64,000 nt of DNA from Bordetella petrii (GTDB taxonomy: Bacteria > Pseudomonadota > Gammaproteobacteria > Burkholderiales > Burkholderiaceae_B), in contig NZ_JAFMZZ010000001.1 in NCBI RefSeq assembly GCF_017356245.1, forward strand, positions 599-64,598, written 5' to 3'. Below are positions 22,526-49,962 of the stretch, piece after piece. Numbering within the stretch: the first letter of the stretch is position 1; the number at the start of each line of letters is the position of its first letter. Below the pieces are notes generated by a model. That model did no database searches. It saw only the letters and a program-made list of their open reading frames with translations, and was not told the origin of the DNA. Made by a program: the position numbers and the translations under genes.

Positions 22526-22624
22526 CAGGTGTCAGGCTCCGCCAGGTGCCTGACACCGCACTGTTGAGACAGTCGCTGCGCACTTCGGGTGTCTGGCACC
22601 TTGTATCTTGGCGCCTGGCACCTG
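22526..22624. repeat. dispersed two-hairpin palindromic element, copy A
   Basis: Hairpin 1: perfect 10-bp arms GGTGTCAGGC (22528-22537) and GCCTGACACC (22548-22557). Hairpin 2: imperfect 13-bp arms at 22588-22600 and 22610-22622. The spacer contains TTGAGACAG (22564-22572). It lies between the start of the EamA gene and the 3' end of the AraC gene, and has no ORF of its own. Copies B, C and D share the GGTGTC arms. Confidence 0.85.
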
Positions 22625-22635
22625 CGCAGTCCGGA

Positions 22636-23439
22636 TCAGGGGCGCGCGTAGGCGCCCGGGGTCAGGCCGTACAGGCGCACGAAAATGCGGGCCATGTGGC
22701 TCTGGTCGGCGAAGCCGCTGGCCGCGGCCGCGTCGGTCAGGGCGGCGCCGTGGCGGATCAGGCGGCGCGCCAGGGCGGCGCGGCGCTGTATCTGGTAGGC
22801 ATGCGGCGTCAGGCCGGTGGCCCGGCTGAAGCCGCGCAGCACCTGGAAGCGGCTCAGGCCGCTGGCGCGCGCCAGGTCGGCCAGCGACAGCGGCGCGGCC
22901 GGGTCGTCGTCGATCAGGGCGCAGGCCTGGGCGATGGCCGCCGGCACCGCTGCGCAGCGGCTTGCCGCGGGCAGGTCGAGCGTGCCGGCCAGCAGCGCCA
23001 GCAGCAAGGATTCGCGCGCGGGCGTGGCCGCGCCGGCGCGCGTGGCCGTGGCGGCCGCATACAGGCGGTGAAAGCGGCCGGCCAGCGCGGCGTCCCGGAT
23101 CACGGGCCGCGCGAATTCGCGCCAGCCGTGGCGGCCCGCGCTGATATCGGCCACGGCGTCCGCCACCCGGCCGGGCTCGACATACAGGATCATCCACTGC
23201 CGGCCGCCATCGCCGATGGGGCTGCCGTCATGGACTTCGCCGGGGTTGACGGTGATGAGATCGCCCGCGCCGGCCTGCACCATGCCCCGTCCGCTGCGGG
23301 ACTGCTGCGCGCCGCGCGTGATCAGGCCGATGCCGAACTGGTCGTGCGTGTGGCGGCCGAACGCATGGCGCGAGTCGGCTTCGATGGCCTCGGCGCCCGC
23401 CAGGCCGCAGGGCACGCGCCGGAACTCGCCGCGCGCCAT
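22636..23439 (-). CDS. AraC family transcriptional regulator with N-terminal cupin
   Basis: 267 residues. N-terminal AraC-binding cupin: HAFGRHTHDQFGIGLITRG and GDLITVNPGEVHDGSP. Two helix-turn-helix motifs at the C-terminus: LSLADLARASGLSRFQVLRG with FSRATGLTPHAYQIQRR, then DAAAASGFADQSHMARIFVR and LTPGAYARP. Effector unknown. The upstream nitronate monooxygenase gene ends 2 bp before this start, so the two are co-transcribed and the regulator may control the enzyme. Confidence 0.9.
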   Translation of the reverse strand: MARGEFRRVPCGLAGAEAIEADSRHAFGRHTHDQFGIGLITRGAQQSRSGRGMVQAGAGDLITVNPGEVHDGSPIGDGGRQWMILYVEPGRVADAVADISAGRHGWREFARPVIRDAALAGRFHRLYAAATATRAGAATPARESLLLALLAGTLDLPAASRCAAVPAAIAQACALIDDDPAAPLSLADLARASGLSRFQVLRGFSRATGLTPHAYQIQRRAALARRLIRHGAALTDAAAASGFADQSHMARIFVRLYGLTPGAYARP

Positions 23440-23441
23440 GA

Positions 23442-24554
23442 TCAGCCGCGCGCGTTGCCGTAAGCGGCCAGCCCGCCCGCGGCGGCGGCCAATTCGTCTT
23501 TCAGGCGCCGCATCAGTTCAGCGGCCGGCAGGCCGCGCGACAGCGCCGCCGCCTGACCGGCCCACTGGGCGGCGAAGTCGGCGCTGCCGTGCGCCTTGGC
23601 GGCGGCGTTCAGGGCCTTGCCGGCGTCGTAGGTAAAGGGGTAGCCCGGCGTGGGCGGGCAGTCGGCGGCGGCCCCCAGCGCGGTCAGGCGGTTGGCGATG
23701 CCGCGCGCCGGCCGGCCCGAGATGGCGCGGGTCGAAATGGTGGAAACGGGGCCGGCCAGCAGGGCCTGGCGATAGGCCGGATCGGCCGCCGATTCGGGGC
23801 AGGACACGAATGCGGTGCCCAGCTGCGCGGCCTGCGCGCCCAGCGCCAGCACCGCCGCGATGCCGGCGCCGTCCATGATGCCGCCGGCGGCGACCACGGG
23901 CAGCGGGAATTGCGTGGCCAGCAGGCGCGTCAGCGCCAGGGTGCCCAGCTGTTCATCGTGTCCGTCGGGATGAAAGATGCCGCGGTGGCCGCCCGCTTCC
24001 ACGCCCTGGGCCACGATGGCGTCCAGGCCCGCGTCGGCAATGCGCGCGGCCTCTTCGGGGCTGGTGGCGCTGGCCATCAGGTAGATGCCGGCCTGGCGTA
24101 GCGCGGCGATGCGCGCCGCGTCGGGCAGCCCGAAATGGAAGCTGACCACCGCGGGGCGCTCGGCCAGCAGCACGTCCAGCATGGCGTCGTCGGCCACGAA
24201 GCTGGTGTAGATCTCGCGCAGGGCGGCGGGCGGCTGGGCGCCGAATTCGGCGAAGGCGGGGGCCAGGTATTCGATCCAGCGGGCCTGGCGCGCCGCGTCG
24301 GAAACGTCGGGCGCATGGCAGAACAGGTTGACGCCGAACGGGCGCGCCGTAAGCGCGCGCGTCTGCGCGATGGCCTGGCGCGCGCCGTCGGCGTTGGTGG
24401 CGCCCAGGCCCAGCGAGCCCAGGCCGCCGGCATTGGACACGGCGGCGGCCAGGGCCGGCGTGCTGGTGCCCGCCATGGGCGCCTGGATGATGGGCGCCGA
24501 CAGGCCCAGGCGGGCCATCAGGGCGGGGGCGGCGGTTGCGGAAGCAGTGGGCAT
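23442..24554 (-). CDS. nitronate monooxygenase family flavoprotein
   Basis: 370 residues from ATG at 24554. The frame stays open further upstream but that part has no family match. TIM-barrel FMN enzyme: [40 protein letters not shown], then [10 protein letters not shown], which carries the catalytic His of class I nitronate monooxygenases, and [20 protein letters not shown] for FMN phosphate. It oxidises alkyl nitronates (propionate 3-nitronate) to carbonyls and nitrite; some relatives act as enoyl reductases. Leads an operon with the AraC gene. Confidence 0.9.
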
Positions 24555-24734
24555 GGGCGATTTCCGGTGGTGGAATTTGCAAGCAACGGTACTTGAATGC
24601 GGGCCGGCTGCAAAGCGCGCCGGCCCGCCATGCTGTACGTATCGAAACAATCCTGCAATTTACGCCATTGGGGGCGGGCAGCTACGATGCCCGACTGTCC
24701 AGCATTGCCCGCCCACTCGCACAGAGGAGCGCAG

Positions 24735-25325
24735 ATGCGCACTGCATTCGGCAAGATCAAGACCAGGCTGGCCGCCGGCGTCGGTTCGACGGTGGCGGTG
24801 GGCGCCGCGGCGGTCTACAGCGTTTTCGGGGCCGGCCCGCCGCCGCCCGTGGCGCAGTACGGGGCCGGCAGCGCCATCGAGGCCGGCCGCTGGCGGGTGA
24901 CGCCGCAGCGCGCCTGGGTCAGCCACAAGCGGGTCTACGGCGTGCCGATCAAGCCGGGCCAGCAGGCGCTGGTGCTCGAGGCCGATCTCAGCAACCGCAC
25001 GCGAACGTCCACCGGCAGTTATTCCGATCTGCTGCGGCTGCAGCCCGTGCCGGGCGCCAAGCCGGAAGATCCGGTCGTCGCGCAGGTGCGCGATCCGCAG
25101 ATCGCGCCCTTGCTGCATCCCGGCATGCCCGAGCGCGTGGTCTATGTCTGGATGATGCCCGGTTCGGCAACGCCGCCCGCCTCGCTGAGCGTCGATGTGG
25201 TGGCCGAGACCTACAAGCCGGTCGACAATCTGTTCGGCACGCCGGGCTGGTTCAACCCGGCGGTGATCGGCCGGGTGACGTTGCCGCTCGGCCAGCCGCC
25301 CGCCGGCGCGGAGCAGGCTTCGTGA
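24735..25325 (+). CDS. uncharacterised membrane-anchored protein 1 of a coupled trio
   Basis: 196 residues from ATG 24735 behind AGAGGAG. One N-terminal helix (about 10-33) anchors a beta-rich extracytoplasmic domain (AGRWRVTPQRAWVSHKRVYG, QQALVLEADLSNRTRTSTGS, SLSVDVVAETYKP). The pattern suggests an immunoglobulin-like fold such as DUF4352, but no family match is certain. The stop overlaps the GTG start of the next gene by 4 bp. Confidence 0.65.
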   Translation: MRTAFGKIKTRLAAGVGSTVAVGAAAVYSVFGAGPPPPVAQYGAGSAIEAGRWRVTPQRAWVSHKRVYGVPIKPGQQALVLEADLSNRTRTSTGSYSDLLRLQPVPGAKPEDPVVAQVRDPQIAPLLHPGMPERVVYVWMMPGSATPPASLSVDVVAETYKPVDNLFGTPGWFNPAVIGRVTLPLGQPPAGAEQAS

Positions 25326-26481: not shown

Positions 26482-26494
26482 GCGCCGCGGGCGT

Positions 26495-28429: not shown

Positions 28430-28780
28430 TCAGCGGTGCACCAGGATGTTGACCAGCTTGCCGAAGGGGTCGCGCACATAGAAGCGGCGCACGCCCCAGG
28501 GTTCGTCGGCGGGGCCGTATTCGATGGCGAAGCCGCCCGCGCGCAGGCGCCGCAGGGCTTCGTCCAGGTCGTCGACTTCGATGGAAAGATCCGGGGTGGG
28601 GGTGTCCGAGCCGCCCTGGGTGGCGACGCTGACCTGCACCGTCATGCTGCGCGGCGCGCCGTAGGTGGCAAGCCAGCCGTGATCCATCAGGATGTCCAGG
28701 CCCAGCGCGTCGCCATAGAACCGCTGGGCCGCCGCGATGTTGGTGGCGTGGATGTTGGCGACGATGCGCTTGACTTGCAT
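28430..28780 (-). CDS. VOC family protein
   Basis: 116 residues from ATG at 28780 with GGAG upstream. The frame is open for 11 further codons that do not match the family. Typical halves: VKRIVANIHATNIAAAQRFY and PDLSIEVDDLDEALRRLRAG, ending RRFYVRDPFGKLVNILVH, which carries the usual Glu/His-type metal-site region. Could be a glyoxalase-like or antibiotic-binding protein; substrate unknown. Co-transcribed with the RimL-like gene. Confidence 0.85.
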   Translation of the reverse strand: MQVKRIVANIHATNIAAAQRFYGDALGLDILMDHGWLATYGAPRSMTVQVSVATQGGSDTPTPDLSIEVDDLDEALRRLRAGGFAIEYGPADEPWGVRRFYVRDPFGKLVNILVHR

Positions 28781-28973: not shown

Positions 28974-29069
28974 CAGGTGTCTGACTCCCAAAGGGTGTCA
29001 GACACCGTGCTATTGAGACAGCCTCTGCACCCGTCGGTGTCCGGCACCCTGCGGGAGCCGGACACCTGC
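28974..29069. repeat. dispersed two-hairpin palindromic element, copy B
   Basis: Hairpin 1: perfect arms GGTGTCTGAC (28976-28985) and GTCAGACACC (28997-29006), extended inward by CCC/GGG around an AAA loop. Hairpin 2: perfect arms GGTGTCCGGC (29036-29045) and GCCGGACACC (29057-29066), extended by CCC/GGG around TGC. Spacer has TTGAGACAG (29013-29021). A 9-bp inverted repeat, GGCGTTGCC (28965-28973) and GGCAACGCC (29071-29079), flanks the whole element. It abuts the receptor remnant. Confidence 0.9.
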
Positions 29070-29110: not shown

Positions 29111-31660
29111 TCAGGATGCGTGCCGGCCCAGCCGTTTCACCAGGCCCTGCGTGCCGTCGACCTGCACGGTTTCGCCCGCCTGCAACTGCCCGAGAATGCC
29201 GGGCATGTTGGCGACGGCCGGGATGCCGAACTCGCGCGCGACGATGGCGCCGTGCGACAGGTAGCCGCCCGTTTCCATGATGAGCGCGCCCGCTTTCAGG
29301 AACAGCGGCGTCCAGGCCGGGTCGGTGGACGGCACCGCCAGCACGTCGCCCGCGGCCATGCCCAGGCCGTCGGCGGGGCTGCGGGCGATGTGGATCCGGC
29401 CCTGCGCCTGCCCGCTGCCAACGGGCGTGCCCTGCCAGGCGCCGGCCCGGCCGCCGGGCGCCGCGGGCGCCTGGTCCGGCGGGGCAGCCGCGGCGGGCGG
29501 GGCATCGGCGGCGGCAATGACGGCCGGCTCGGCTTGCGCGGCCCAGTCTTGCAGGCGCATGCGCCGCTGGGCGGCGCGGCTGGCGGCGGCGGCGGGCGCC
29601 AGCCGCTCTTCGGCCAGGGCCTGGAGCTCGGCCGCGGTCAGGTTGAAGATGTCGTCGGGGCGCTGCAGGCCATCGGTGCCGCTGAAGCGCCGCGCCAGCG
29701 CCAGCGCGTCGCCGCGCAGCACTTCCAGGTAGGCGGCCAGCGCGCTGCGCGCCGCTTCGCGGTGCCTGCTGTCGGCCTGCGCCGCCTGCAGCAACCGACG
29801 GGCCAGCGGCCGCAGCCACAGCGGCAGCGCGCCGCGCACGCGCTGCCAGGCCTGCGTGCCGGCCTGCTGCTGGCGCAGGCGCAGGGCGGCGTCGTCGTAG
29901 CCGAGCAGGCCGGCGATGTGGTCCAGCAGGTAGCCGGGGGATTCGCGCCAGCGCGGGCTGCGCAGATAAGTTTCATACAGGCCGCGGTGGCCATGGCGTT
30001 TCAGGAAAGCGCTGAAAGCCTGCCGGAACGGGCTGCTGCGGGCCAGCTGATGCCGCCATTCGGCACTATGCCGGCCGGGCTGGCGCAGCCAGGCCAGCGC
30101 GGGGCCGTCGGCGGCGGCGATGCGCGCCAGGTCCAGCAGTTCGTAGGCCTGCTGCGCCGTGACGCTGGGCGGGCCGCCCGCCATCAGGGCCGCGGCCAAG
30201 GCGTGGCCCTGGCCCGGGCAGTACTTGTCGATGAGCTGCACCAGGTTGTACAGCGTGCCGCCGCCCGAGCCCTGCAGAAAGAACAGGTCGTCGGCGCCGC
30301 GCACTGCCGCGAATCGCTGGCGCAGGCGCGCGCCCCAGGCCGCGGGCGTTTCCGGCAGGGGCTGCGCGCGCCAGCCGGCGGCCTGCCGCAAGGCGCTTGC
30401 CAGCACCGCCGGCGCGGCGCGGCGCTGCCGGCCTGCCGCGCGCAGATAGCGCAGCAGGCGCAGACCGCGCGCGCAGCGCTGGCGCAGCGATGGCGCCGGC
30501 ACGGTAATTTCCGGTTGTTCGCCGCCCAGCAGCCGGTTCATGTCGCGCGGCGCAATGCCCAGCGCGTCGTAGCCTTCCCATTGCATCAGCGAGGTTTGCA
30601 GATACAGGCGCCCGTAGAACAGCGCGGCGTGCGCGGCGCCCGGCAGGACGGGGTAGCCGGCCAGTTCGTAGCCGCGCGTAAGCATGCGGTCGGCCATCGC
30701 GCGGCACAGGGTCCAGTCCAGCGGCGACAGGGGGTCGGGAAGAATTTCGCGGGTATTGCCGCGCGACCAATAGGCGGGCTGCCCGGCCAGTGCCGCATAA
30801 GTGCGGTGCGCCCGGGTGGTCACCGGCCGGGCCTGCACGATCCAGTGGCGCCGGCCGTCCCAGGCCCATTCCAGGTCGTAGCCCGCCTGGGCGTAGTCGA
30901 GCGCGGCCGCGGCGTCGCGTGCGATCTCGCCCAGCGACACCGCCTGCGCCGGCGTCAGCACGGGTTGCGCGGCCCGCGCGGCAGGCAGGGGCAGCAGTTC
31001 GGTGCCGCCGCCGGGCGACACCGCGGTGTGGCGCGCTTTGGCGCCCAGCCGCCGGCCCGCCAGGCGCAGGCTGCCGTCGACGCGGTCTTCCTGCAGCCGG
31101 TATTCGTCGCCGTCGGCCTGGCCGCTTACCAGTGCTTCGCCCAGGCCCCAGTTGGCATGGATGACGAGCTGGTCGTCGCGGCCCGAGACCGGGTCGCAGG
31201 TGAAGATGATGCCGGCGGACTCGGCCTGCAATAGAGGCATTACGACCACCGCCATGCCGGCCGCCGCATCGGCCAGCCCCAGGCGCTGCCGATACGCCCG
31301 CGCCTGGGGTGTCCAGGCGGAATCCCGGATGTCGCGCACGGCCTGCAGCACGGCCGCCTGGCCGCGCACGTTCAGCCGCGACAAATGGATGCCGGCGAAC
31401 GAAGCGCCGGCCGAATCTTCCATCGGGGCCGACGAACGCAGGGCCAGCGGCAGGTCTTGCCAGCCGCGGCGCTCGAGCTCGGCGGCCAGTGCGGCCTGCA
31501 TGTCGGCCGGCACCGCGACGCCCGCCTGCGCGGCAATGACAAAACCCGGCGGCACCGGCACGCCCAGGCTGGCCATGCGCCCCAATTGCCAGCCCTTGCC
31601 GCCGGCTATCGCCGGGCCGGCCTGGGCGGCGGCGGCCCAGTCGAGCAGCAGGGCGCTCAT
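29111..31660 (-). CDS. PEP-synthase-like / rifampicin phosphotransferase-like enzyme
   Basis: 849 residues. Order: ATP-grasp nucleotide-binding domain (GGKGWQLGRMASLGVPVPPG, then LALRSSAPMEDSAGASFAGI), ending at about residue 305 with WIVQARPVTTR; a long helical central domain (about 320-740); and a C-terminal swivelling phosphohistidine domain with METGGYLSHGAIVAREFGIP, whose His803 is the phosphoacceptor. Length and order match rifampin phosphotransferases (about 865 residues) better than PEP synthase (about 790 with a PEP-binding C-terminal barrel, absent here). The start overlaps the stop of a TetR regulator by 4 bp. Substrate could be rifamycin or another hydroxylated compound. Confidence 0.8.
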   Translation of the reverse strand: MSALLLDWAAAAQAGPAIAGGKGWQLGRMASLGVPVPPGFVIAAQAGVAVPADMQAALAAELERRGWQDLPLALRSSAPMEDSAGASFAGIHLSRLNVRGQAAVLQAVRDIRDSAWTPQARAYRQRLGLADAAAGMAVVVMPLLQAESAGIIFTCDPVSGRDDQLVIHANWGLGEALVSGQADGDEYRLQEDRVDGSLRLAGRRLGAKARHTAVSPGGGTELLPLPAARAAQPVLTPAQAVSLGEIARDAAAALDYAQAGYDLEWAWDGRRHWIVQARPVTTRAHRTYAALAGQPAYWSRGNTREILPDPLSPLDWTLCRAMADRMLTRGYELAGYPVLPGAAHAALFYGRLYLQTSLMQWEGYDALGIAPRDMNRLLGGEQPEITVPAPSLRQRCARGLRLLRYLRAAGRQRRAAPAVLASALRQAAGWRAQPLPETPAAWGARLRQRFAAVRGADDLFFLQGSGGGTLYNLVQLIDKYCPGQGHALAAALMAGGPPSVTAQQAYELLDLARIAAADGPALAWLRQPGRHSAEWRHQLARSSPFRQAFSAFLKRHGHRGLYETYLRSPRWRESPGYLLDHIAGLLGYDDAALRLRQQQAGTQAWQRVRGALPLWLRPLARRLLQAAQADSRHREAARSALAAYLEVLRGDALALARRFSGTDGLQRPDDIFNLTAAELQALAEERLAPAAAASRAAQRRMRLQDWAAQAEPAVIAAADAPPAAAAPPDQAPAAPGGRAGAWQGTPVGSGQAQGRIHIARSPADGLGMAAGDVLAVPSTDPAWTPLFLKAGALIMETGGYLSHGAIVAREFGIPAVANMPGILGQLQAGETVQVDGTQGLVKRLGRHAS

Positions 31661-32489: not shown

Positions 32490-32549
32490 ATGGCATCTCT
32501 CCAGTGCAAGCTCCCCAGGCCGCCCCCCAGCCGGCCCAGCGCGTCGTAG
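32490..32549 (+). other. possible 19-codon leader ORF upstream of narG
   Basis: ATG 32490 preceded by AAGGA at about 7 nt gives MASLQCKLPRPPPSRPSAS and a stop at 32547-32549, 29 bp before the narG start. It carries a Pro-Pro-Pro stretch, which often stalls ribosomes. The RBS is better than that of narG itself. No conservation can be checked here, so it may be chance. Confidence 0.25.
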
Positions 32550-32578
32550 CCCCTGCCAACGCCATCTGGAGCCTGACC

Positions 32579-35500
32579 GTGAGCCATTTCGTCGACCGCC
32601 TCAAGTACTTCACCCGTGCCAAAGAGTCATTCGCCGATGGGCACGGCAGTGTTGTCCAAGAAGACCGCAGCTGGGAAAAGGCCTATCGCGACCGGTGGCA
32701 GCACGACAAGATCGTGCGCTCGACCCACGGCGTGAATTGCACGGGCTCCTGTTCCTGGAAAATCTACGTGAAGGGCGGCATCGTCACGTGGGAAACCCAG
32801 CAGACCGACTACCCCCGCACGCGCGCCGGCATGCCCAACCACGAGCCGCGCGGCTGTTCGCGCGGCGCGTCGTATTCGTGGTACCTGTACAGCGCCAACC
32901 GCATCAAGTACCCCATGCTGCGCGGCCGCCTGGCGCGCCTGTGGCGCGAGGCCCGCAAGACCATGGCGCCGCTGGCGGCATGGGAACACATCTGCGCCAC
33001 CCCGGGGCTGGCCGACGAATACAAGCGCGTGCGCGGCATGGGCGGGTTCGTGCGCGCCACCTGGGACGAAGTCAACGAGCTGGTGGCCGCCGCCAACGTA
33101 CACACGGTCAAGCGCTACGGGCCCGACCGCGTGGTGGGGTTCTCGCCGATCCCGGCCATGTCGATGGTGTCGTTCGCGGCCGGCAGCCGGTATCTGTCGC
33201 TGCTGGGCGGCACCATTCTCAGCTTCTACGACTGGTATTGCGACCTGCCGCCGTCCAGCCCGCAAACCTGGGGCGAACAGACCGACGTGGCCGAATCGGC
33301 CGATTGGTACAACTCCAGCTTCATCATGCTGTGGGGCTCGAACGTGCCGCAGACGCGCACGCCCGACGCCCACTTCATGGTCGAGGCGCGCTACCGCGGC
33401 GCCAAGATCGTGTCGATCTTTCCCGACTACGCCGAGGGGGCGAAGTTCGGCGACCTGTGGCTGCACCCCAAGCAGGGCACCGACGCCGCGCTGGCGCTGG
33501 CCATGGGCCATGTGATCCTGAAAGAATTTCACCTCGAGGGCAAGAGCGAATACTTCCGCGAATACTGCCGCCGCTATTCCGACATGCCCTTCCTGGTGCG
33601 CCTGGTGCGGCAGGGCGACCGGTATGTGCCCGAACGCATGCTGCGCGCCGCCGATTTTCCGGACGGGCTGGGGCAGGCCAACAACCCGGCCTGGAAGACC
33701 GTGGCTTGCGACGACGCCACCGGGCAGGTGGTGGTGCCGGCCGGGTCGATCGGCTTTCGCTGGGGCCAGCAGGAAGGCGGCGACCAGGGCAAGTGGAACC
33801 TGGAAGCCAAGGACGCGCAGGGCGGCGCGGTAACGCTGCGCCTGTCGCTGGTGGGCAGCCACGACGACGTGGTGCCGGTGGCGTTCCCGTATTTCGGCGG
33901 CCGCCAGCACGATTACTTCCAGGGCACCGACCACGCCGAGGTGCTCGAGCGCAACATGGCGGTGCGCCGCCTGCAGACCACCGAGGGCGAGGTGCTGGCC
34001 GTGACGGTGTACGACCTGCTGATGGCCAACTACGGACTGGACCGCGGGCTGGGCGGCGCCAACGTGGCCGCCTCGTACGACGACGACGTGCCCTATACGC
34101 CGGCCTGGCAAGAGCGCATCACGGGCGTCAAGCGCGACGACGTCATCACCGTGGCGCGGCAGTTCGCGCTGAACGCCGACAAGACCCAGGGCAAGTCCAT
34201 GGTGATTCTGGGGGCGGGCCTGAACCACTGGTATCACATGGACATGGCCTACCGCGGCATCATCAACCTGGTGGTGATGTGCGGCTGCGTGGGGCAGTCG
34301 GGCGGCGGCTGGTGCCACTATGTGGGCCAGGAAAAGCTGCGGCCCCAGACCGGCTGGACCACGCTGGCGTTCGGCCTGGACTGGTGCCGTCCGCCGCGCC
34401 ACATGAACGGCACGTCGTTCTTCTACGCGCACACCGACCAGTGGCGCTACGAGCGGCTGAAAGTGTCCGAGATCCTGTCGCCGCTGGCCGACCCGGGCGC
34501 GTTCCAGGGCTCGCTGATCGATTTCAACGTGCGCGCCGAGCGCATGGGCTGGCTGCCGTCTGCGCCGCAGCTGCAGACCAACCCGCTGCAGGTGGTGCGC
34601 GACGCGCGCCAGGCGGGGCAGGAGCCCGCGGCCTACGCCGTGCAGGCGCTGCGCGACGGGCGCCTGAAACTGTCCTGTGAAGACCCCGATCATCCCGACA
34701 ACCATCCGCGCAACATGTTTGTGTGGCGTTCCAACCTGCTGGGTTCGTCGGGCAAGGGCCACGAATATTTCCTGAAGCACCTGCTGGGAACCGAGCACGG
34801 CGTGCAGGGCAAGGACCTGGGCCAGGCCGGCGAAGACAAGCCGCAGGAAGTGGCCTGGCATGACGAGGCGCCGCGCGGCAAACTCGACCTGCTGGTGACG
34901 CTGGACTTCCGCATGTCCACCACCTGTGTGTATTCCGATGTGGTGCTGCCCACCGCCACCTGGTACGAAAAGAACGACCTGAACACCTCGGACATGCATC
35001 CGTTCATCCACCCGCTGTCGGCCGCCGTCGACCCGGTGTGGGAATCGCGCAGCGACTGGGAAATCTACAAGGGCATCGCGCGGGCGTTCTCGGCCATCGC
35101 CGAGACCGAACTGCCCGCCGCGCAAGACCTGGTGCTGACGCCGCTGCAGCACGACAGCCCCGCCGAACTGGGCGACCCGTACGACGTGCGCGACTGGAAG
35201 CACGGCCAGGCCGAGATGATTCCCGGCAAGACCATGCCGTCGATGGCGGTGGTAGAGCGCAACTACCCGGGCCTGTACAAGCAGTTCACGTCGCTGGGGC
35301 CGCTGACGCGCAAGCTGGGCGTGGGCGGCAAGGGCATCAACTGGCCGGCGGGTGACGAATGCGACCTGCTGGCGCAGCTGAACTACCAGGTGGACGAGCA
35401 GGGCGTCAGCCACGGCCTGCCGCGCCTGGACACCGACATCGACGCGGCCGAGACCATCCTGGCGCTGGCGCCCGAGACCAACGGCCACGTGGCGGTGAAG

Positions 35501-36337
35501 GCCTGGCAGGCGCTGTCGGCCATGACGGGCCGCGACCACGCGCACCTGGCGCTGCCGCGCGAGCACGAGAAAATCCGCTACCGCGACCTGCAGGCGCAGC
35601 CGCGCAAGATCATCTCGTCGCCGACCTGGTCGGGGCTGGAATCGGATCATGTCAGCTACAACGCCGGCTACACCAATGTGCATGAGCTGATTCCCTGGCG
35701 CACCCTGACAGGCCGCCAGCAGCTCTACCAGGACCACACCTGGATGCGCGCCTTCGGCGAAGCGCTGTGCGTGTACCGCCCGCCGGTGGACACCAAGTCG
35801 ATCACGCCCATGCTGGAAGAGCGCTACGGCAATGGCAACCCCCAGGTGGTGCTGAACTTCATCACCCCGCACCAGAAGTGGGGCATCCATTCCACCTACA
35901 CCGACAACCTGATCATGCTGACCCTGTCGCGCGGCGGGCCGATATTGTGGGTGTCGGAAAAAGACGCCGCCCGCGCCGGCCTGGTGGACAACGACTGGAT
36001 CGAGGCCTACAACGTGAACGGCGCCCTGGTGGCGCGGGTGGTGGTCAGCCAGCGCGTGCCCGAAGGCATGACCATGATGTACCACGCGCAGGAAAAGATC
36101 GTGAATGTGCCTGGCTCGGAAATCACCGGCGCGCGCGGCGGCATCCACAATTCGGTGACGCGCGCGGTGCTCAAGCCCACCCACATGATCGGCGGCTACG
36201 CCCAGCTGTCGTACGGGCTGAATTACTACGGCACGGTGGGTTCCAACCGCGATGAATTCGTGATCGTGCGCAAGATGAACCAGATCGACTGGCTGGAAAG
36301 GCCGCGTGCGGCCCAACCCGAAACCCCCCACGTCTAG
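32579..36337 (+). CDS. narG: respiratory nitrate reductase alpha subunit
   Basis: 1252 residues from GTG 32579, chosen because MSHFVDRLKYF matches known NarG starts and TGGAG lies 7 nt before it; a GTG 25 codons earlier is also open. Ligands of the N-terminal [4Fe-4S] cluster: His50, Cys54, Cys58, Cys93 (RSTHGVNCTGSCSWKIY, PRGCSRGAS). Mo ligand Asp in SFYDWYCDLPP. Strong NarG blocks continue to TVGSNRDEFVIVRKM. It reduces nitrate to nitrite at the cytoplasmic face using quinol electrons from NarHI. First gene of the operon narGHJI-ppiC-narK. Confidence 0.98.
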   Translation: MSHFVDRLKYFTRAKESFADGHGSVVQEDRSWEKAYRDRWQHDKIVRSTHGVNCTGSCSWKIYVKGGIVTWETQQTDYPRTRAGMPNHEPRGCSRGASYSWYLYSANRIKYPMLRGRLARLWREARKTMAPLAAWEHICATPGLADEYKRVRGMGGFVRATWDEVNELVAAANVHTVKRYGPDRVVGFSPIPAMSMVSFAAGSRYLSLLGGTILSFYDWYCDLPPSSPQTWGEQTDVAESADWYNSSFIMLWGSNVPQTRTPDAHFMVEARYRGAKIVSIFPDYAEGAKFGDLWLHPKQGTDAALALAMGHVILKEFHLEGKSEYFREYCRRYSDMPFLVRLVRQGDRYVPERMLRAADFPDGLGQANNPAWKTVACDDATGQVVVPAGSIGFRWGQQEGGDQGKWNLEAKDAQGGAVTLRLSLVGSHDDVVPVAFPYFGGRQHDYFQGTDHAEVLERNMAVRRLQTTEGEVLAVTVYDLLMANYGLDRGLGGANVAASYDDDVPYTPAWQERITGVKRDDVITVARQFALNADKTQGKSMVILGAGLNHWYHMDMAYRGIINLVVMCGCVGQSGGGWCHYVGQEKLRPQTGWTTLAFGLDWCRPPRHMNGTSFFYAHTDQWRYERLKVSEILSPLADPGAFQGSLIDFNVRAERMGWLPSAPQLQTNPLQVVRDARQAGQEPAAYAVQALRDGRLKLSCEDPDHPDNHPRNMFVWRSNLLGSSGKGHEYFLKHLLGTEHGVQGKDLGQAGEDKPQEVAWHDEAPRGKLDLLVTLDFRMSTTCVYSDVVLPTATWYEKNDLNTSDMHPFIHPLSAAVDPVWESRSDWEIYKGIARAFSAIAETELPAAQDLVLTPLQHDSPAELGDPYDVRDWKHGQAEMIPGKTMPSMAVVERNYPGLYKQFTSLGPLTRKLGVGGKGINWPAGDECDLLAQLNYQVDEQGVSHGLPRLDTDIDAAETILALAPETNGHVAVKAWQALSAMTGRDHAHLALPREHEKIRYRDLQAQPRKIISSPTWSGLESDHVSYNAGYTNVHELIPWRTLTGRQQLYQDHTWMRAFGEALCVYRPPVDTKSITPMLEERYGNGNPQVVLNFITPHQKWGIHSTYTDNLIMLTLSRGGPILWVSEKDAARAGLVDNDWIEAYNVNGALVARVVVSQRVPEGMTMMYHAQEKIVNVPGSEITGARGGIHNSVTRAVLKPTHMIGGYAQLSYGLNYYGTVGSNRDEFVIVRKMNQIDWLERPRAAQPETPHV

Positions 36338-36346
36338 GAGACAGGC

Positions 36347-37897
36347 ATGAAGGTGCGTGCGCAAATCGCAATGGTGCTGAACCTGGACAAATGCATCGGC
36401 TGTCATACCTGTTCGGTCACCTGTAAAAACGTCTGGACCTCGCGCGGCGGCATGGAATACGCCTGGTTCAACAATGTGGAAACCAAGCCCGGCATCGGCT
36501 ACCCCAAAGACTGGGAAAACCAGAAGCGCTGGAACGGCGGCTGGAAACGCACGGCGGCGGGCAAGATCGAGCCGCGCCAGGGCGGCAAGCTGCGGCTGCT
36601 GGCCAATATCTTCGCCAATCCCAACCTGCCCGAGATCGACGACTACTACGAGCCGTTCACGTTCGACTACGAGCACCTGCACAACGCGCCGGAACTGCAG
36701 GCCGCGCCCACGGCGCGGCCGCGCTCGCTGATCACCGGCCAGCGCATGGAAAAGATCGAGTGGGGCCCCAACTGGGAAGAGATCCTGGGGGGCGAGTTCT
36801 CGAAGCGCTCTCAGGACTACAACTTCGAAGACGTGCAGAAAGACATCTACGGGCAGTTCGAGAACACCTTCATGATGTACCTGCCCCGGCTGTGCGAACA
36901 CTGCCTGAACCCCAGCTGCGTGGCCAGCTGTCCGTCCGGGTCGATCTACAAGCGCGAGGAAGACGGCATCGTGCTGATCGACCAGGACAAGTGCCGCGGT
37001 TGGCGCATGTGCGTGTCGGGCTGCCCGTACAAGAAAATCTACTACAACTGGCAAAGCGGCAAGGCCGAAAAGTGCATCTTCTGCTATCCGCGCATCGAGG
37101 CCGGCCAGCCCACCGTGTGTTCCGAAACCTGCGTGGGCCGCATCCGCTACCTGGGCGTGCTGCTGTACGACGCCGACCGCATCGAGCAGGCCGCGTCCGT
37201 ACAGGACGAGAAAGCCCTGTACGAGGCCCAGCTGGGCGTGTTCCTGGATCCGGAAGACCCGGCCGTGATCGCGCAGGCGCTGGCCGACGGCGTGCCGCAG
37301 GGCTGGCTGGACGCGGCGCGCCAGTCGCCCACCTACAAAATGGCGGTGCAGTGGCGCATTGCCTTCCCGCTGCATCCCGAATACCGCACGCTGCCCATGG
37401 TGTGGTACGTGCCGCCGCTGTCGCCGATCCAGTCGGCAGCCAATAGCGGCCACATCGGCGCCTTCGGCGAAATTCCCGATGTGCGCTCGCTGCGCATCCC
37501 GCTGCGCTACCTGGCCAATATGCTGACCGCCGGCGACGAGGCGCCGGTGGCGCTGGCGCTGGAGCGCCTGCTGGCCATGCGCGCCTTCATGAGGGCCCGC
37601 ACGGTCGACGGCGAAGAGCGCGGCGACATCCTGAGCCAGGTGGGTTTAAGCACGGCCCAGGTCGAGGACATGTACCGCTACCTGGCCATCGCCAACTACG
37701 AAGACCGCTTCGTCATCCCGACCTCGCATCGCGAGTATGCCGAAGACGCCTTCGACATGCGCGGCGGCTGCGGCTTCTCGTTCGGCAATGGCTGTTCCGA
37801 CGGCGTATCGAAGGGCAGCCTGTTCGGCAACAAGCCGCGCGGCAACGAGCAGCAGGTGGTGTTCATGGAAGTGCAGCGCGACAAAGTGGCGGGGTAG
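36347..37897 (+). CDS. narH: respiratory nitrate reductase beta subunit
   Basis: 516 residues, ATG behind TAGGAG, 9 bp after narG. Four cysteine groups for Fe-S clusters: CIGCHTCSVTCKNVW, CEHCLNPSCVASCPSG, CRGWRMCVSGCPYKK (Trp in place of one Cys, as usual for the [3Fe-4S] cluster) and CIFCYPRIEAGQPTVCSETC. Passes electrons from NarI hemes to NarG. Full length and undamaged. Confidence 0.98.
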   Translation: MKVRAQIAMVLNLDKCIGCHTCSVTCKNVWTSRGGMEYAWFNNVETKPGIGYPKDWENQKRWNGGWKRTAAGKIEPRQGGKLRLLANIFANPNLPEIDDYYEPFTFDYEHLHNAPELQAAPTARPRSLITGQRMEKIEWGPNWEEILGGEFSKRSQDYNFEDVQKDIYGQFENTFMMYLPRLCEHCLNPSCVASCPSGSIYKREEDGIVLIDQDKCRGWRMCVSGCPYKKIYYNWQSGKAEKCIFCYPRIEAGQPTVCSETCVGRIRYLGVLLYDADRIEQAASVQDEKALYEAQLGVFLDPEDPAVIAQALADGVPQGWLDAARQSPTYKMAVQWRIAFPLHPEYRTLPMVWYVPPLSPIQSAANSGHIGAFGEIPDVRSLRIPLRYLANMLTAGDEAPVALALERLLAMRAFMRARTVDGEERGDILSQVGLSTAQVEDMYRYLAIANYEDRFVIPTSHREYAEDAFDMRGGCGFSFGNGCSDGVSKGSLFGNKPRGNEQQVVFMEVQRDKVAG

Positions 37898-40088: not shown

Positions 40089-41330
40089 ATGAGCAATCAC
40101 CCCAGGGCCTACGCGGTGTTGTACAGCAGCACGTTTGCTTTCATGGTCTGCTTCGTGGTGTGGATGATGTTCGGCGTGCTGGGTATCCGCATCCGCCAGG
40201 AACTCGGGCTGAACGCCTTCCAGTTCGGCCTGCTGACGTCCACCCCGGTGCTGACCGGCGCCGTCTTCCGCCTGCCGCTGGGTATATGGACCGACCGCTA
40301 CGGCGGACGGGTGGTGATGACGGTGCTGCTGGTGGGCTGCGCGATCCCGGTGTACCTGGTCAGCTACGCGCAGGAGCTGTGGCAGTTTCTGCTGATCGGC
40401 CTGTTCCTGGGGCTGGTGGGGGCCTCGTTCGCGGTGGGCACGCCTTATGTGTCGCGCTTTTTCTCGGCCGAGCGCAAGGGCTTCGCCATGGGGTTCTTCG
40501 GCGCCGGCACGGTGGGCGCGGCGGTCAACCTGTTCATCACGCCGGTGCTGCTTGAAACCTACGGCTGGCGGGCCGTGCCCAAGATCTACGCGGTGGCGCT
40601 GCTGGTGACGGCGGTGCTGTTCTGGTTCGTGGCGGCGCCCGATCCCGGGGCCGGCAAATCCGGCGGCAAGTTGCTGGACCAGTTCAAGGTGCTGAAGAAC
40701 CCCCGCGTATGGCGCTACTGCCAGTATTACTCGATTACCTTCGGCGGGTTCACCGCGCTGTCGTTGTGGATTCCCCAGTATTTCCAGGCCGAATACGGCC
40801 TGGCCCTGGTGGCCGCCTCGGCGCTGGCGGCCGGTTTTTCCCTGCCGGGGGCGGTGCTGCGCGCTGTGGGCGGCGGCCTGGCCGACCGCTACGGCGCGCA
40901 CAAGATGACCTGGTGGTGCCTGTGGGTGGCCTGGATATGCCTGTTCATCCTGTCGTACCCCAACACTACGCTGACAGTGCAGACCCTGCACGGCTCGGAG
41001 TCCTTCCACATCTACCTGCCGATCTGGCTGTTCACGCTGCTGCTGTTCGTGCTGGGGGCGATGTTCGCCTTCGGCATGGCTTCCACGTTCAAGTACGTGG
41101 CGGACGATTTCCCCGAGAACATGGGCGTGGTGACCGGCATCGTGGGCCTGGCCGGCGGGCTGGGCGGGTTCCTGCTGCCGCTGTTGTTCGGCGCCATGGC
41201 CGACGCGCTGCAGATCCGCTCCAGCTGCTTCATGCTGCTCTACGGCGTGGTGTGGGTGTCGCTGATCGTGATGTACCTGGGCGAGGTAAGGCGGGTGGAG
41301 ATCTCGGGCGAGGTGGCGCCGGAACGCTGA
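40089..41330 (+). CDS. narK: nitrate/nitrite transporter, NNP family of MFS
   Basis: 413 residues, twelve membrane helices. NNP landmarks: MMFGVLGIRIRQELGLNAFQ, LTSTPVLTGAVFRLPLGIW (arginine in helix 2), GLFLGLVGASFAVGTPYVS, the nitrate signature GFFGAGTVGAAVNLFITPV and the second signature GIVGLAGGLGGFLLPLLFG. Carries nitrate in and/or nitrite out. Located last in the nar operon, 33 bp after the parvulin gene. Single, not fused, so NarK1 or NarK2 mode cannot be fixed. Confidence 0.93.
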   Translation: MSNHPRAYAVLYSSTFAFMVCFVVWMMFGVLGIRIRQELGLNAFQFGLLTSTPVLTGAVFRLPLGIWTDRYGGRVVMTVLLVGCAIPVYLVSYAQELWQFLLIGLFLGLVGASFAVGTPYVSRFFSAERKGFAMGFFGAGTVGAAVNLFITPVLLETYGWRAVPKIYAVALLVTAVLFWFVAAPDPGAGKSGGKLLDQFKVLKNPRVWRYCQYYSITFGGFTALSLWIPQYFQAEYGLALVAASALAAGFSLPGAVLRAVGGGLADRYGAHKMTWWCLWVAWICLFILSYPNTTLTVQTLHGSESFHIYLPIWLFTLLLFVLGAMFAFGMASTFKYVADDFPENMGVVTGIVGLAGGLGGFLLPLLFGAMADALQIRSSCFMLLYGVVWVSLIVMYLGEVRRVEISGEVAPER

Positions 41331-41343: not shown

Positions 41344-41378
41344 CAGGTGTCTGACACCCTGCGGGTGTCAGACACCTG
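41344..41378. repeat. dispersed palindromic element, copy C (single perfect hairpin)
   Basis: Perfect 16-bp arms, CAGGTGTCTGACACCC at 41344-41359 and its complement at 41363-41378, with a TGC loop. It stands alone between the convergent ends of narK and the flavin oxidoreductase gene, where it can act as a bidirectional hairpin terminator. It matches one half of the two-hairpin copies. Confidence 0.88.
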
Positions 41379-46737: not shown

Positions 46738-47657
46738 AGCTGGTCAGCTATCGCGGCGCCGGCGGCCGGCCCGCCGTGGGGGCCGTGCGCGACGGCCGCG
46801 TGCTGGACCTGGGCGGCTGGCTGGGCGATGTGGTGCCCGATGCCGCCGCGCAGGCCTGCCTGGCGCAGGCGGGGCTGCTGCCGGCCGCGCACGGCATGCT
46901 GCGGCTGCTGCAGGGCGGCCCGCGGGCGCTGGACGATTTGCGGCGCCATCTGGCCGGCCGGCCCGCCGACGATGGCGGACCGCGGCTGGCCGACATCGAA
47001 CTGCTGGCGCCGGTGCCCCGCCCGGGCAAGATCGTGGCGGTGGGGCGCAACTACGCCGATCACGCCAAGGAAACCGGCGTCGGCCCATTCGAACAGCCCC
47101 GCATCGTCAGCAAGCTGCCGTCCAGCGTGTGCGCGCCGGGGCAGGCCGTGCCGCGGCCGGCCGGCGTGGCCAAGCTGGACTTCGAGGCCGAACTCGCGGT
47201 GGTGATCGGGCGCCCGGCGCGCGCCGTGGCCGAGTCCGACGCGCTGGCCTGCGTGGCGGGCTATACGGTGCTGGACGATGTCAGCGCGCGCGAATTCCAG
47301 TTCGACGTGTCGCCGGCCCAGACCACGTTCGCCAAAAGCATGGACAGCTTCGCGCCCATGGGGCCGTGGCTGGTCACCGCCGACGAGGTGGGCGACCCGC
47401 AGGCGCTGACGGTGCGCAGCTGGCTGAACGACGAACTGATGCAGCAGGCCAGCACCGCCGACATGCTGTTCCCGGTGGCGACGCTGATCGCCTATGTGTC
47501 GCGCTACATGACGCTGGAGCCGGGCGATGTGCTGGCCACCGGCACGCCGGCCGGCATCGGCGCGTTCCGCGACCCGCCGCGCTATCTGCAGCCGGGCGAC
47601 CGGCTGCGCATGGAGGTGTCGCGCGTGGGCGTGCTGCAGCACTCGATCGCGCCCTGA
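46734..47657 (+). CDS. fumarylacetoacetate hydrolase (FAH) family protein
   Basis: 307 residues, ATG overlapping the TauD stop. N-terminal cap (about 1-95), then the FAH core: KIVAVGRNYADHAKETG, metal ligand Glu in KLDFEAELAVVIG, YTVLDDVSAREFQFD, SMDSFAPMGPWLVTADE and LEPGDVLATGTPAGIG. Family members cleave C-C bonds or decarboxylate/hydrate ring-cleavage products. Coupled to TauD, so they act in one path. Confidence 0.93.
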   Translation: MKLVSYRGAGGRPAVGAVRDGRVLDLGGWLGDVVPDAAAQACLAQAGLLPAAHGMLRLLQGGPRALDDLRRHLAGRPADDGGPRLADIELLAPVPRPGKIVAVGRNYADHAKETGVGPFEQPRIVSKLPSSVCAPGQAVPRPAGVAKLDFEAELAVVIGRPARAVAESDALACVAGYTVLDDVSAREFQFDVSPAQTTFAKSMDSFAPMGPWLVTADEVGDPQALTVRSWLNDELMQQASTADMLFPVATLIAYVSRYMTLEPGDVLATGTPAGIGAFRDPPRYLQPGDRLRMEVSRVGVLQHSIAP

Positions 47658-47702
47658 CCAGGTAGTACCTGCATAACACCAACAACCACCAAGGAGAGAC
47701 CC

Positions 47703-48686
47703 ATGAGCAGACCCATCATCCGGGCGGCCTGCGCCGCCCTGTTCGCCGCCGCGGCGCTGCCCGCCGTGCCGGCCTCGGCCGACAGCTATCCCACCCAGCC
47801 GGTGCGCATGATCGTCGGCTTCGCGGCGGGCGGCCCCACCGATGTCATCGCGCGCCTGCTGGCGCAGGACATGAGCCAGACGCTGGGCCAGTCGGTGGTG
47901 GTGGAAAACAAGACCGGCGCCAATTCGCTGATCGCCACGCGCGAGGTGGCGGAGGCGCCCGCCGACGGCTATACCGTGCTGTTCGCCTCGCTGTCGCACA
48001 ACGTCAATTGGCTGCTGCTGGGGGACAAGGCCGGCTACGACCCGCTGAAAGACTTCGCGCCCATTTCCAACGCGGCGTCGCTGCCCATGGTGGCGGTCAC
48101 CGCCTACGATTCGCCGATCCGTTCGATGCAGCAGCTGATCGACCAGGCGCGCGCCAAGCCCGACAGCATCAGCTATGGCTCGGCCGGCAACGGCGGCTCG
48201 GCCCACCTGGCCGCCGCCATGATGGGCACCATGGCGCACCTGAAGATGCTCCACGTGCCGTTTCGCGGCAATGGCCCGGCGCTGACCGAGGTGATGGCCG
48301 GGCGAGTGTCGTTCATGTTCTATCCCATTATCGGGGTGGCCGAGAACGTGCAGGCCAAGCGCGTGCGCGTGCTGGCGCTGGGCAGCCCCGAGGCCCGCGC
48401 GGATTTTCCCGGCGTGCCGGCTATGTCCGACATCGGCTTTCCCGACTTCCAGGACACGGCGCCGTGGGTCGGCCTGCTGGCGCCGGCCGGCGTGCCCGAT
48501 GCGGTGGTGCGGAAGCTGAACCAGGCCATGGTGCACGCGTTGAAACAGCCGCAGATCCAGTCGCGCCTGAAAGACCTGGGGGCGCTGGCCATCGGCGACA
48601 GTCCGCAGCACTTCCGCGACTTTCTGCTGCAAGACCAGAAGCGCTGGGCCGCCGTGATCAAGGCGGCCGGCATTTCGGCCCAGTAG
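47703..48686 (+). CDS. Bug/TctC periplasmic substrate-binding protein 2
   Basis: 327 residues, AAGGAGAGAC upstream, 45 bp after the FAH-family gene. Signal peptide about 1-25 (PAVPASADS). Bug motifs: YPTQPVRMIVGFAAGGPTDV, VVVENKTGANSLIATREVAE, SPIRSMQQLIDQARAKPDSI and VPFRGNGPALTEVMAG. It probably binds the acid degraded by the cluster. Orphan: no TctAB partner here. Confidence 0.93.
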   Translation: MSRPIIRAACAALFAAAALPAVPASADSYPTQPVRMIVGFAAGGPTDVIARLLAQDMSQTLGQSVVVENKTGANSLIATREVAEAPADGYTVLFASLSHNVNWLLLGDKAGYDPLKDFAPISNAASLPMVAVTAYDSPIRSMQQLIDQARAKPDSISYGSAGNGGSAHLAAAMMGTMAHLKMLHVPFRGNGPALTEVMAGRVSFMFYPIIGVAENVQAKRVRVLALGSPEARADFPGVPAMSDIGFPDFQDTAPWVGLLAPAGVPDAVVRKLNQAMVHALKQPQIQSRLKDLGALAIGDSPQHFRDFLLQDQKRWAAVIKAAGISAQ

Positions 48687-48691
48687 GCGCC

Positions 48692-49843
48692 ATGGCCACA
48701 GCAGCAAGCCGCGCCCAGAGTATCGAAGACTTGCGGCGCATCGCGCGGCGCCGCCTGCCGCGCGCCATCTTCGATTTTTTCGATGGCGGCGCGGAAGACG
48801 AGCTGGCGCTGGCGGGCAATTGCGCCGCCTTCGCCAGGCTGCGCCTGGCGCCGCGCGCGCTGGTGGATGTGTCGCAGGTGCAGACGCAGGCCGACGTGCT
48901 GGGCGGCCCGGCGGCGCTGCCGCTGGCGGTGGCCCCTACCGGCGCCGTGGGCTATGGGCGCCCGGGCGGCGACATTGCCATCGCGCGCGCCGCGGCAGCT
49001 GCGGGCGTGCCGTACACCTTGTCGACCTCGGCCACCGCGTCGATCGAGCAGATTGCCCGGGCGGCGCCAGGCCGCCTGTGGTTCCAGGCGTACATTTTGC
49101 GCAACCGCGAATTGCTGGACGCGCTGATCGCCCGCGCCCGCGCCGCCGATTATGAAGCGCTGATGATCACGGTAGACCTGCCGGTGGGCGGCAAGCGCGA
49201 GCGCGATGCCCGCAATCACCTGTCGTTTCCGTTCCGCTATACCGCGCGCAATGTGCTGGACTTCGGCAGCCGGCCCGCCTGGGCGCTGGCGATGCTGCGC
49301 CGCGGCCTGCCGGTGATGGAAAACCTGAAGGGGCTGGAGGCGCCGGCCGCCAGCGCGACCCGGCTGGCTTCATCGGTGGGCCGCAGCTACGATCCTTCGT
49401 TCGACTGGAGCCGCCTGCGGGCCATTCGCGACGCGTGGCCGCGCAAACTGATCGTCAAGGGCATCCTGCGCCCCGACGATGCCGAACGCCTGGTGGCGCT
49501 GGGTTGCGACGCGGTGGTGGTGTCCAACCATGGCGGGCGCCAGCTGGACAGCGCCGCGGCCACGCTGGATGCCTTGCCCGCCGTGGTGCGGGCCGTGAAT
49601 GGCCGCGTGCCGGTGCTGGTGGACGGCGGCGTGCGGCGCGGCGCCGACCTGCTGAAAGCGCGCGTGCTGGGCGCGCAGGCGGTGCTGGTGGGCCGCGCCA
49701 CGCTGTGGGGCGCGGTGGCCGCAGGCCAGCCCGGCGCCGAGCGCGCCCTGGCCATCCTGCGCGACGAACTGCAGCGCACCATGCAGCTGTGCGGCGCACA
49801 GAACGTGGCCGACATCGGCGCCGATCTGCTGTTCCAGCCTTGA
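48692..49843 (+). CDS. FMN-dependent alpha-hydroxyacid oxidase/dehydrogenase
   Basis: 383 residues from ATG 48692, 5 bp after the Bug gene. Typical of lactate/mandelate/glycolate oxidoreductases: SIEDLRRIARRRLPRAIFDF with FDGGAEDE, LPLAVAPTGAVGYGRPGGDI, STSATASIEQIA, ITVDLPVGGKRERDARN, KLIVKGILRPDDAERLV and the active-site block VVSNHGGRQLDSAAATLDAL (His base, Arg). Oxidises an L-2-hydroxyacid to the 2-oxoacid. No membrane anchor evident. Last gene of the operon before repeat D. Confidence 0.92.
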   Translation: MATAASRAQSIEDLRRIARRRLPRAIFDFFDGGAEDELALAGNCAAFARLRLAPRALVDVSQVQTQADVLGGPAALPLAVAPTGAVGYGRPGGDIAIARAAAAAGVPYTLSTSATASIEQIARAAPGRLWFQAYILRNRELLDALIARARAADYEALMITVDLPVGGKRERDARNHLSFPFRYTARNVLDFGSRPAWALAMLRRGLPVMENLKGLEAPAASATRLASSVGRSYDPSFDWSRLRAIRDAWPRKLIVKGILRPDDAERLVALGCDAVVVSNHGGRQLDSAAATLDALPAVVRAVNGRVPVLVDGGVRRGADLLKARVLGAQAVLVGRATLWGAVAAGQPGAERALAILRDELQRTMQLCGAQNVADIGADLLFQP

Positions 49844-49851
49844 TGCGCCGC

Positions 49852-49962
49852 CCAGGTGTCAGGCTCCGCAAGGTGCCTGACACCGAAGTAAGCCGCAGCC
49901 GTCTCAGTCGTACGGTGTCCGACACCCTGCGGGAGCCAGACACCTAGACACCTAGACACCTG
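49852..49962. repeat. dispersed two-hairpin palindromic element, copy D (inverted spacer) with tandem tail
   Basis: Hairpin 1: perfect arms GGTGTCAGGC (49855-49864) and GCCTGACACC (49875-49884). Hairpin 2: 10-bp arms at 49914-49923 and 49935-49944 with two mismatches. The spacer holds the complement of the TTGAGACAG-type motif (as GTCTCAG, 49901-49907), so this copy is inverted relative to A and B. The right end carries GACACCTA-type 8-bp units in tandem up to 49962. No ORF. Located between the hydroxyacid oxidase and HD genes. Confidence 0.87.

What the first reader, a model, noticed from the sequence alone, without database searches (positions are those of the whole stretch)
22526..49962. 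Four copies of a mobile-looking two-hairpin palindromic repeat
Seen: copies at 22526-22624, 28974-29069, 41344-41378 and 49852-49962. Full copies have two hairpins with GGTGTC.../...GACACC arms flanking an asymmetric ~30-nt spacer that contains a TTGAGACAG-like motif. Copy D has the spacer in reverse orientation, and copy C is a lone perfect 16-bp hairpin with a TGC loop. Stems are conserved while sequences differ by compensated changes (TCTGAC/GTCAGA, TCCGGC/GCCGGA, TCAGGC/GCCTGA). All are intergenic. This is like a BIME/REP-type element, possibly moved by a REP-associated transposase elsewhere, or a terminator cassette. No ORF inside. Inference: selection acts on structure.
Basis: partly seen in the sequence, partly recalled or inferred. 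Interest (0 to 1): 0.75.

Follow-up and report, generated by a model that had tools for sequence, protein, structure and literature searches.

The report
Orphaned mobile hairpin repeats in Bordetella
A Bordetella-type genome carries more than a hundred small two-hairpin DNA repeats of a mobile kind but seems to have lost the enzyme that copies them, and relatives that still have the enzyme suggest the hairpins grew out of the simpler end-repeats of an older transposase.

Summary
The four repeats are real members of a genome-wide family (strict hairpin pattern: 142 plus-strand and 143 minus-strand matches, some hairpins counted on both; backwards control 0). A full copy is a ~95-bp REPIN-like element: hairpin, 29-30-nt spacer, inverted hairpin, with covarying stems and a conserved mismatch. 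Copy D is the whole element inserted the other way round. Of 9 congeners (named relatives are Bordetella), six carry one REP-associated tyrosine transposase (RAYT) gene beside these repeats, and two have neither. The window's genome has repeats but no cognate RAYT, only a RAYT-like paralogue without HUH motif and catalytic tyrosine. Its sister species and two others share a RAYT locus; here that locus keeps a decayed repeat cluster. In Bordetella sp. BOR01 the RAYT sits in the gap where the window has lone hairpin C. Best reading: RAYT-mobilised elements, orphaned by RAYT loss. The twist: this RAYT has the motifs of subclass 2.1 (group 1), reported to lack REPs, and longer-tailed relatives carry inverted repeats with the same GGTGTCAGAC core, suggesting REPs that evolved from terminal inverted repeats. 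New variant of a known kind.

The parts
22526..22624 (+). Copy A, full REPIN-like element: hairpin 1 22528-22557, spacer 22558-22587, degenerate hairpin 2 22588-22622; spacer orientation +. Between an EamA-type transporter gene (21493-22392, -) and an AraC-type regulator gene (22636-23439, -)
   Evidence: flanking genes; absent from the orthologous gap in G001, G006 and G008
28974..29069 (+). Copy B, full element: hairpin 1 28976-29006, spacer 29007-29035, hairpin 2 29036-29066; spacer orientation +. Between a glyoxalase-like gene (28430-28780, -) and a PPDK/PEP-utiliser-domain gene (29111-31660, -)
41344..41378 (.). Copy C, lone perfect 16-bp hairpin with TGC loop, between an MFS transporter gene (40089-41330, +) and an ORF on the other strand. 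Same gap holds the RAYT cassette in Bordetella sp. BOR01 (G008), a lone hairpin in G006, no repeat in G003
   Evidence: comparison
49852..49962 (-). Copy D, full element in the opposite orientation (hairpins 49855-49884 and 49914-49944, spacer 49885-49913) with a short tandem duplication at 49945-49962. Between an FMN-dehydrogenase gene (stop at 49843, +) and an HD-domain gene (50023-50679, -)
   Evidence: absent from the orthologous gap in G008

Best explanation
The repeats are non-autonomous REPIN-like elements that were spread in trans by a RAYT, a Y1 HUH single-strand DNA transposase. Inferred mechanism, by analogy with studied TnpAREP systems: when the strand is single-stranded the two inverted hairpins fold, the RAYT recognises stem, mismatch and foot, cuts beside them and joins the piece to a new site; surviving insertions lie mostly just after stop codons. 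Shown here: anatomy, covariation, conserved mismatch, copy number, intergenic placement, RAYT-repeat association in congeners, empty orthologous sites, and no catalytic RAYT found in this genome. Inferred: the cutting and joining, and that the window's lineage once had the RAYT and lost it, leaving an orphan population in which C and the cluster at the sister species' RAYT locus are remnants or landing sites.
For: Family: 142+/143- strict hairpins, control 0; 46 repeat loci in 522 kb sampled, of which 33 are at least 80 bp, 8 are 45-79 bp and 5 are shorter (264 kb contiguous plus 20 regions chosen around pattern hits). Structure. RAYT association: PF01797 in 6 of 9 congeners, one match each; strict repeats within 1.5 kb of the gene in 6 of 6; repeats in 7 of 9: 6 have both, 2 neither, G000 repeats only. 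NCBIfam calls two of three tested RAYTs REP_Tyr_transpos above cut-off, the third 77.4 against 80 bits; catalytic motifs are kept in the 5 intact genus RAYTs. Mobility: site A absent in 3 of 3 congeners with anchors (G001, G006, G008), D absent in 1 of 1 (G008); two further sites in 264 kb: one absent in G001, one an array of 9 there. RAYT loss: G000 is sister to G001 (support 99.9/100); the RAYT is at locus X in G001, G005 and G002 (in G002 the contig ends at the RAYT, so only one flank is seen); G000 keeps a decayed repeat cluster at X. Placement: 43 of 45 loci intergenic; 23 convergent, 19 tandem, 1 divergent against 56/176/68 gaps; 33 within 30 nt of a stop, 0 within 30 nt of a start.
Against: No movement was seen directly; presence/absence compares species, not strains, and 15 of 18 sites in 264 kb could not be anchored in G001. 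G000 is a 14-contig assembly, so a RAYT in an unassembled gap is not excluded. No GTAG/GTGG foot was found. Direction at site C (RAYT lost here or gained in BOR01) is unresolved: G006 has a lone hairpin there and G003 none.
Confidence: 0.84

Rival explanations
1. The repeats are ordinary transcription terminators or mRNA 3'-end hairpins kept by selection at gene ends.
For: 33 of 43 intergenic loci lie within 30 nt of a stop codon and convergent gaps are over-represented; stems covary.
Against: No terminator-like hit at C or D (A and B not scanned). Near-identical 95-bp units with a shared spacer motif and the same mismatch occur at unrelated genes. They lie beside a transposase gene in 6 of 6 RAYT-bearing congeners and are missing from orthologous gaps. 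A secondary role at mRNA ends is not excluded.
Confidence: 0.06
2. The population is still mobile: a cognate RAYT exists in this genome but fell into an assembly gap.
For: 14 contigs; RAYT genes sit in repeat arrays that break assemblies, as in G002.
Confidence: 0.1
3. They are MITEs of a different transposon family and the RAYT association is secondary.
For: Near-symmetric inverted-repeat ends; the RAYT is missing here.
Against: The repeat core GG[T/G]GTC[A/T]GAC lies forward upstream and reversed downstream of the transposase in 20 of 44 RAYT-type loci, including long-tailed relatives in other genera, while shuffled flanks average at most 0.12 hits per locus; 8 of 9 dead-paralogue loci have none. 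No target-site duplication was recognised at A or D (by eye).
Confidence: 0.03

Closest known systems
REPINs of Pseudomonas fluorescens SBW25 (PMC3116915, passages seen)
   Same: Two inverted REPs with a spacer, intergenic, many copies, singlets beside doublets, RAYT gene flanked by the same REPs.
   Different: No GTAG/GTGG-type foot; long stem with one mismatch; and the RAYT carries subclass 2.1 (group 1) motifs, whereas the REP-bearing Pseudomonas/Xanthomonas RAYTs are subclass 2.5 (group 3) in PMC6006769.
GTAG-tagged REPs and E. coli REP/TnpAREP (PMC3733652; PMC8266576; PDB 4er8)
   Same: Hairpin with a conserved mismatch region; RAYT is a sequence relative of 4er8 (E 2e-05).
   Different: Foot before the stem here is CA, not GTAG. 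Aligned to 4er8, the GTAG-contact residues Q95, E100, H101, R104 are E, S, R, D (residue numbers from PMC8266576 and PMC6006769); long-tailed relatives share E and S too, so this is a trait of the wider group.
TIRtrons/TIRYTs (PMC3733652 section 16) = subclass 2.1 / group 1 (PMC6006769)
   Same: RAYT motifs NHVH, WE, YIELNP match the subclass 2.1 row of Table 1; a related core (GGGGWSAS in print; GGGGTCAGAC and GGTGTCAGAC here) flanks the genes.
   Different: The ~48-residue C-terminal tail is missing (median tail 56.5 vs 104 residues) and the flanking repeats are hairpins spread as REPIN-like elements; Table 1 gives 'no' REP for subclass 2.1.
RAYT loss with REPs left behind (PMC3686654, passages; also PMC3733652 on E. 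coli)
   Same: Abundant REPs without cognate RAYT where related strains have it.
   Different: Here the sister's RAYT locus can be compared and keeps a decayed repeat cluster.
Bor-1 stem-loop family of B. bronchiseptica / B. pertussis (PMC2267715, table passages)
   Same: Intergenic, structured; model length 117 and 93, 196 and 128 members.
   Different: Its sequence was not seen, so identity with this family is untested.

Membership tests
REPIN | two REPs in inverted orientation around a spacer | tested here: met
   33 of 46 sampled loci are 80 bp or longer
REPIN | many copies, extragenic | tested here: met
   43 of 45 loci intergenic (crude gene calls)
REPIN | cognate RAYT flanked by the same REPs | tested here: met
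   met in 6 of 6 RAYT-bearing congeners; in the window's own genome no such gene was found
REPIN | movement or excision | tested here: inconclusive
   empty orthologous sites between species; no strain-level or read data
GTAG-tagged REP super-family | GTAG/GTGG-type tetranucleotide foot | tested here: not met
   foot is CA in 23 of 29, TA in 1, not captured in full in 5
TIRtron / subclass 2.1 RAYT | NHVH, W[EQ], YIELNP motifs | tested here: met
   7 of 7 tested, the YIELNP test allowing L or M against Table 1 of PMC6006769
TIRtron / subclass 2.1 RAYT | C-terminal tail domain | tested here: not met
   54-73 residues follow the Tyr motif in the 7 genus/Achromobacter-type RAYTs, about 100 in 6 of 7 longer-tailed relatives, 72 in the seventh, L062
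TIRtron / subclass 2.1 RAYT | no REP-like hairpins near the gene | tested here: not met
intrinsic terminator | hairpin followed by a T tract | tested here: not met
   C and D by scan; A and B by reading

The most novel reading that the evidence does not exclude
A RAYT lineage of subclass 2.1 (group 1, held to have no REPs) shed its C-terminal tail and turned the core of its terminal inverted repeat (G[G/T]GTCAGAC) into palindromes: short 13-mers in Achromobacter, 30-nt hairpins in Bordetella. It thereby founded its own REPIN-like population, a second origin of REPINs, and the window's lineage then lost the enzyme while keeping the population.
Probability: 0.5. Interest if true: 0.66.

Novelty: new variant of a known kind. 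Interest (0 to 1): 0.5.

Why it matters
If right, it links two things treated as separate, terminal inverted repeats and REPs, in one gene lineage with extant intermediates, and gives a system in which the DNA step (one motif becoming a hairpin) and the protein step (loss of a tail) can be tested. It also gives a sister-species pair, one with the RAYT and one apparently without, for asking what happens to a REPIN population after its enzyme is gone, a case that PMC8049555 states its model does not cover (passage seen).

Tried and rejected
Rfam: no family reached gathering score in the window. Terminators: rejected for C and D. The paralogue as mobiliser: rejected as a Y1 enzyme, because none of 120 listed homologues (of 2078 found) keeps a histidine at the two HUH columns and 120 of 120 have Trp at the Tyr column; it could still bind DNA. 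'GTAG-contact residues lost together with the tag': weakened, since long-tailed relatives share Q95E and E100S. Deletion-scar reading of C: kept only as one option, because G006 has a lone hairpin and G003 nothing there.

Failed or replaced steps: the gene caller chose shadow ORFs and was replaced; trees suffered from unoriented or empty alignments and were replaced; the anchor protein proved to be an antisense shadow of narG, usable only as a place marker. The tree of short-tailed RAYTs is weak at the key node (support 0.59 for 29 rows; 1.0 for the next node, 30 rows) and four other short-tailed rows lie outside that node, one of them a named partial sequence. The covariance-model tools were not used.

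Full report
Observation. They belong to a family spread over the whole genome: BLAST with copy B gave 191 first-look candidates, of which 40 were scored, giving 72 matches, each element often matching on both strands. A strict hairpin pattern gave 142 matches on one strand and 143 on the other, with 0 for the pattern read backwards; hairpins without the mismatch, such as C, count on both strands. In 264 kb of contiguous sequence including the window a profile found 18 repeat loci; adding 20 regions picked around pattern hits gave 46 loci in 522 kb.

Anatomy. A full copy is CAGGTGTC..., a 12-pair stem with one internal mismatch, a short loop, a 29-30-nt spacer with a TTGAGACAG-like motif, and the inverted hairpin. 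On 29 copies 98.3% of cells pair and 46 cells change on both sides against 14.9 in shuffles (0 of 500), while sliding the partner by 1-3 columns drops pairing to 29-44%. The mismatch is T.T in 28 of 29 first hairpins and A.A in 27 of 29 second ones, as expected if hairpin 2 is the reverse complement of hairpin 1. Hence copy D is the element in the other orientation. C is a lone, perfectly paired hairpin.

Who moves it. Pfam Y1_Tnp has no match in this genome but one match in each of six of the nine congeners. In all six the gene lies within 1.5 kb of strict repeats. Repeats occur in those six and in G000, and are absent from G004 and G007, which also lack the gene. In 250 genomes of the family the strict pattern hit 7 of the 9 congeners and one other genome, with two odd-looped hits. 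Named records of the congeners' RAYT loci are Bordetella petrii strains, Bordetella sp. BOR01, B. genomosp. 2 and 7. 7 by identity over 3552 bases; the other handle-to-name links and the window's own species are inferred or unknown. NCBIfam names the protein REP-associated tyrosine transposase for two of three tested, the third falling just short.

The window's genome as an orphan. A search with the G001 RAYT finds in G000 only a 30%-identical, 260-aa paralogue that all nine genomes have. It lacks HxH and the catalytic tyrosine. G000 and G001 are sisters (99.9/100; four genes; the deeper nodes are weaker, down to 49.5/46). The RAYT lies at locus X (ugpC/hydrolase gap) in G001 and G005, and in G002 as far as its contig goes. 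G000 has there a 183-nt gap with decayed repeat pieces; G003 has a repeat there; G004, G006, G007 and G008 have none. In BOR01 the RAYT cassette with a repeat array (about 1.57 kb) occupies the gap that holds hairpin C here. G006 has its RAYT at locus Y and G003 at locus Z; in G000 there is no repeat by the pattern at Y and a repeat at Z. So RAYT position changes between species and RAYT sites tend to be repeat sites in relatives. Loss by recombination between flanking repeats, or relocation into repeats, would explain this; the direction at C is open.

Mobility. Site A is empty in three of three congeners with anchors and D in one of one; B and the other congeners could not be compared. Of 18 sites in 264 kb, three could be compared with G001: two absent, one present as an array of nine. 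No target duplication was evident at A or D.

Placement. Of 45 loci with both neighbours called, 43 are intergenic: 23 convergent, 19 tandem, 1 divergent, against 56, 176 and 68 of 300 gaps; 33 lie within 30 nt of a stop and none within 30 nt of a start. The gene calls are crude and 20 of the regions were chosen for holding a hit. PMC3733652 (abstract seen) reports the same placement for REPs.

What kind of RAYT. The proteins carry NHVH, WE and YIELNP, the subclass 2.1 (Bertels group 1) signature in Table 1 of PMC6006769 (sections 13 and 17 and passages seen), whose REP column reads 'no'; a passage says neither automatic nor manual searches found REP-like sequences near these genes and equates them probably with TIRYTs. 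Here the tail after the Tyr motif is 54-73 residues in seven genus/Achromobacter-type proteins; among database hits the nearest 22 have a median of 56.5 and the other 98 a median of 104. Achromobacter-type loci show GGTGTCAGACACC palindromes in inverted pairs about 35 nt apart. Four long-tailed or more distant loci examined with the repeat finder (L057, L058, L060, L064) show inverted repeats with GGTGTCAGAC or GGGGTCAGAC around the gene. The core lies forward upstream and reversed downstream in 20 of 44 RAYT-type loci (L054/L085 and L055/L084 look like the same sequences), with shuffled means of at most 0.12 per locus; L039 and L040 score zero because their hairpins read GGTGTCAGGC or similar; 8 of 9 dead-paralogue loci have none, the ninth having a repeat nearby. 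L064 and L062 already show hairpin forms of GGGGTCAGAC, so hairpins may have arisen more than once.

Literature. Searches: REPIN+RAYT (25), B. petrii+repetitive extragenic palindromic (33: 0), Bordetella+RAYT (34: 1, unrelated), Bordetella+palindromic repeats+intergenic (38), REP-associated tyrosine transposase+Bordetella (39: 1), orphan/loss (76), REPIN+domesticated (77), TIRYT (104: 2), RAYT+Achromobacter+palindromic (105: 0), REPINs+group 1 (106). None of the listings or passages seen describes this family with its RAYT, but PMC3733652 mentions untagged REP-like sequences in Bordetellae and PMC2267715 lists Bor-1; their sequences were not seen. RAYT loss with REPs left is in print (PMC3686654 passages).

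Noticed in passing
G000:C4:918951-919361 (L045 1315-2094); L043-L051; P0001-P0120: A RAYT-like single gene in all nine congeners and many relatives has lost the HUH histidines (0 of 120 listed homologues keep one) and the tyrosine (Trp in 120 of 120), yet a model of P0005 still matches TnpAREP 4er8 (TM 0.71 by target, 0.44 by query; mean pLDDT 85). It looks like a conserved, catalytically dead RAYT.
   Followed up: partly
G001, rc of 3810000-4057999, positions 148305-149875: Tandem array of nine copies of the element, mostly about 181-204 nt apart; the corresponding G000 site has one partial copy. G001 has further arrays in the listing.
   Followed up: no
window 49945-49962: The end of copy D is repeated in tandem (CTAGACAC units), like slippage at the element's edge.
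   Followed up: no
window 32627-37453 (-): A 1608-aa open frame is an antisense shadow of a nitrate reductase alpha (narG-type) gene at 32504-36337 (+) and the gene after it; it has no Pfam match.
   Followed up: yes
G005 RAYT (L034/L042): The RAYT frame of G005 has one in-frame TGA, so that genome may be on the way to losing it.
   Followed up: no
L095 (Candidatus Sumerlaeota MAG) 3661 and 4732: Even this distant RAYT gene is flanked by inverted GGGGTCAGAC repeats, so the TIR core may be very old.
   Followed up: no
RAYT loci C (G008), X (G001, G002, G005), Y (G006), Z (G003): The RAYT gene sits at four different places in six congeners, although RAYTs are described as vertically inherited single genes.
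   Followed up: partly
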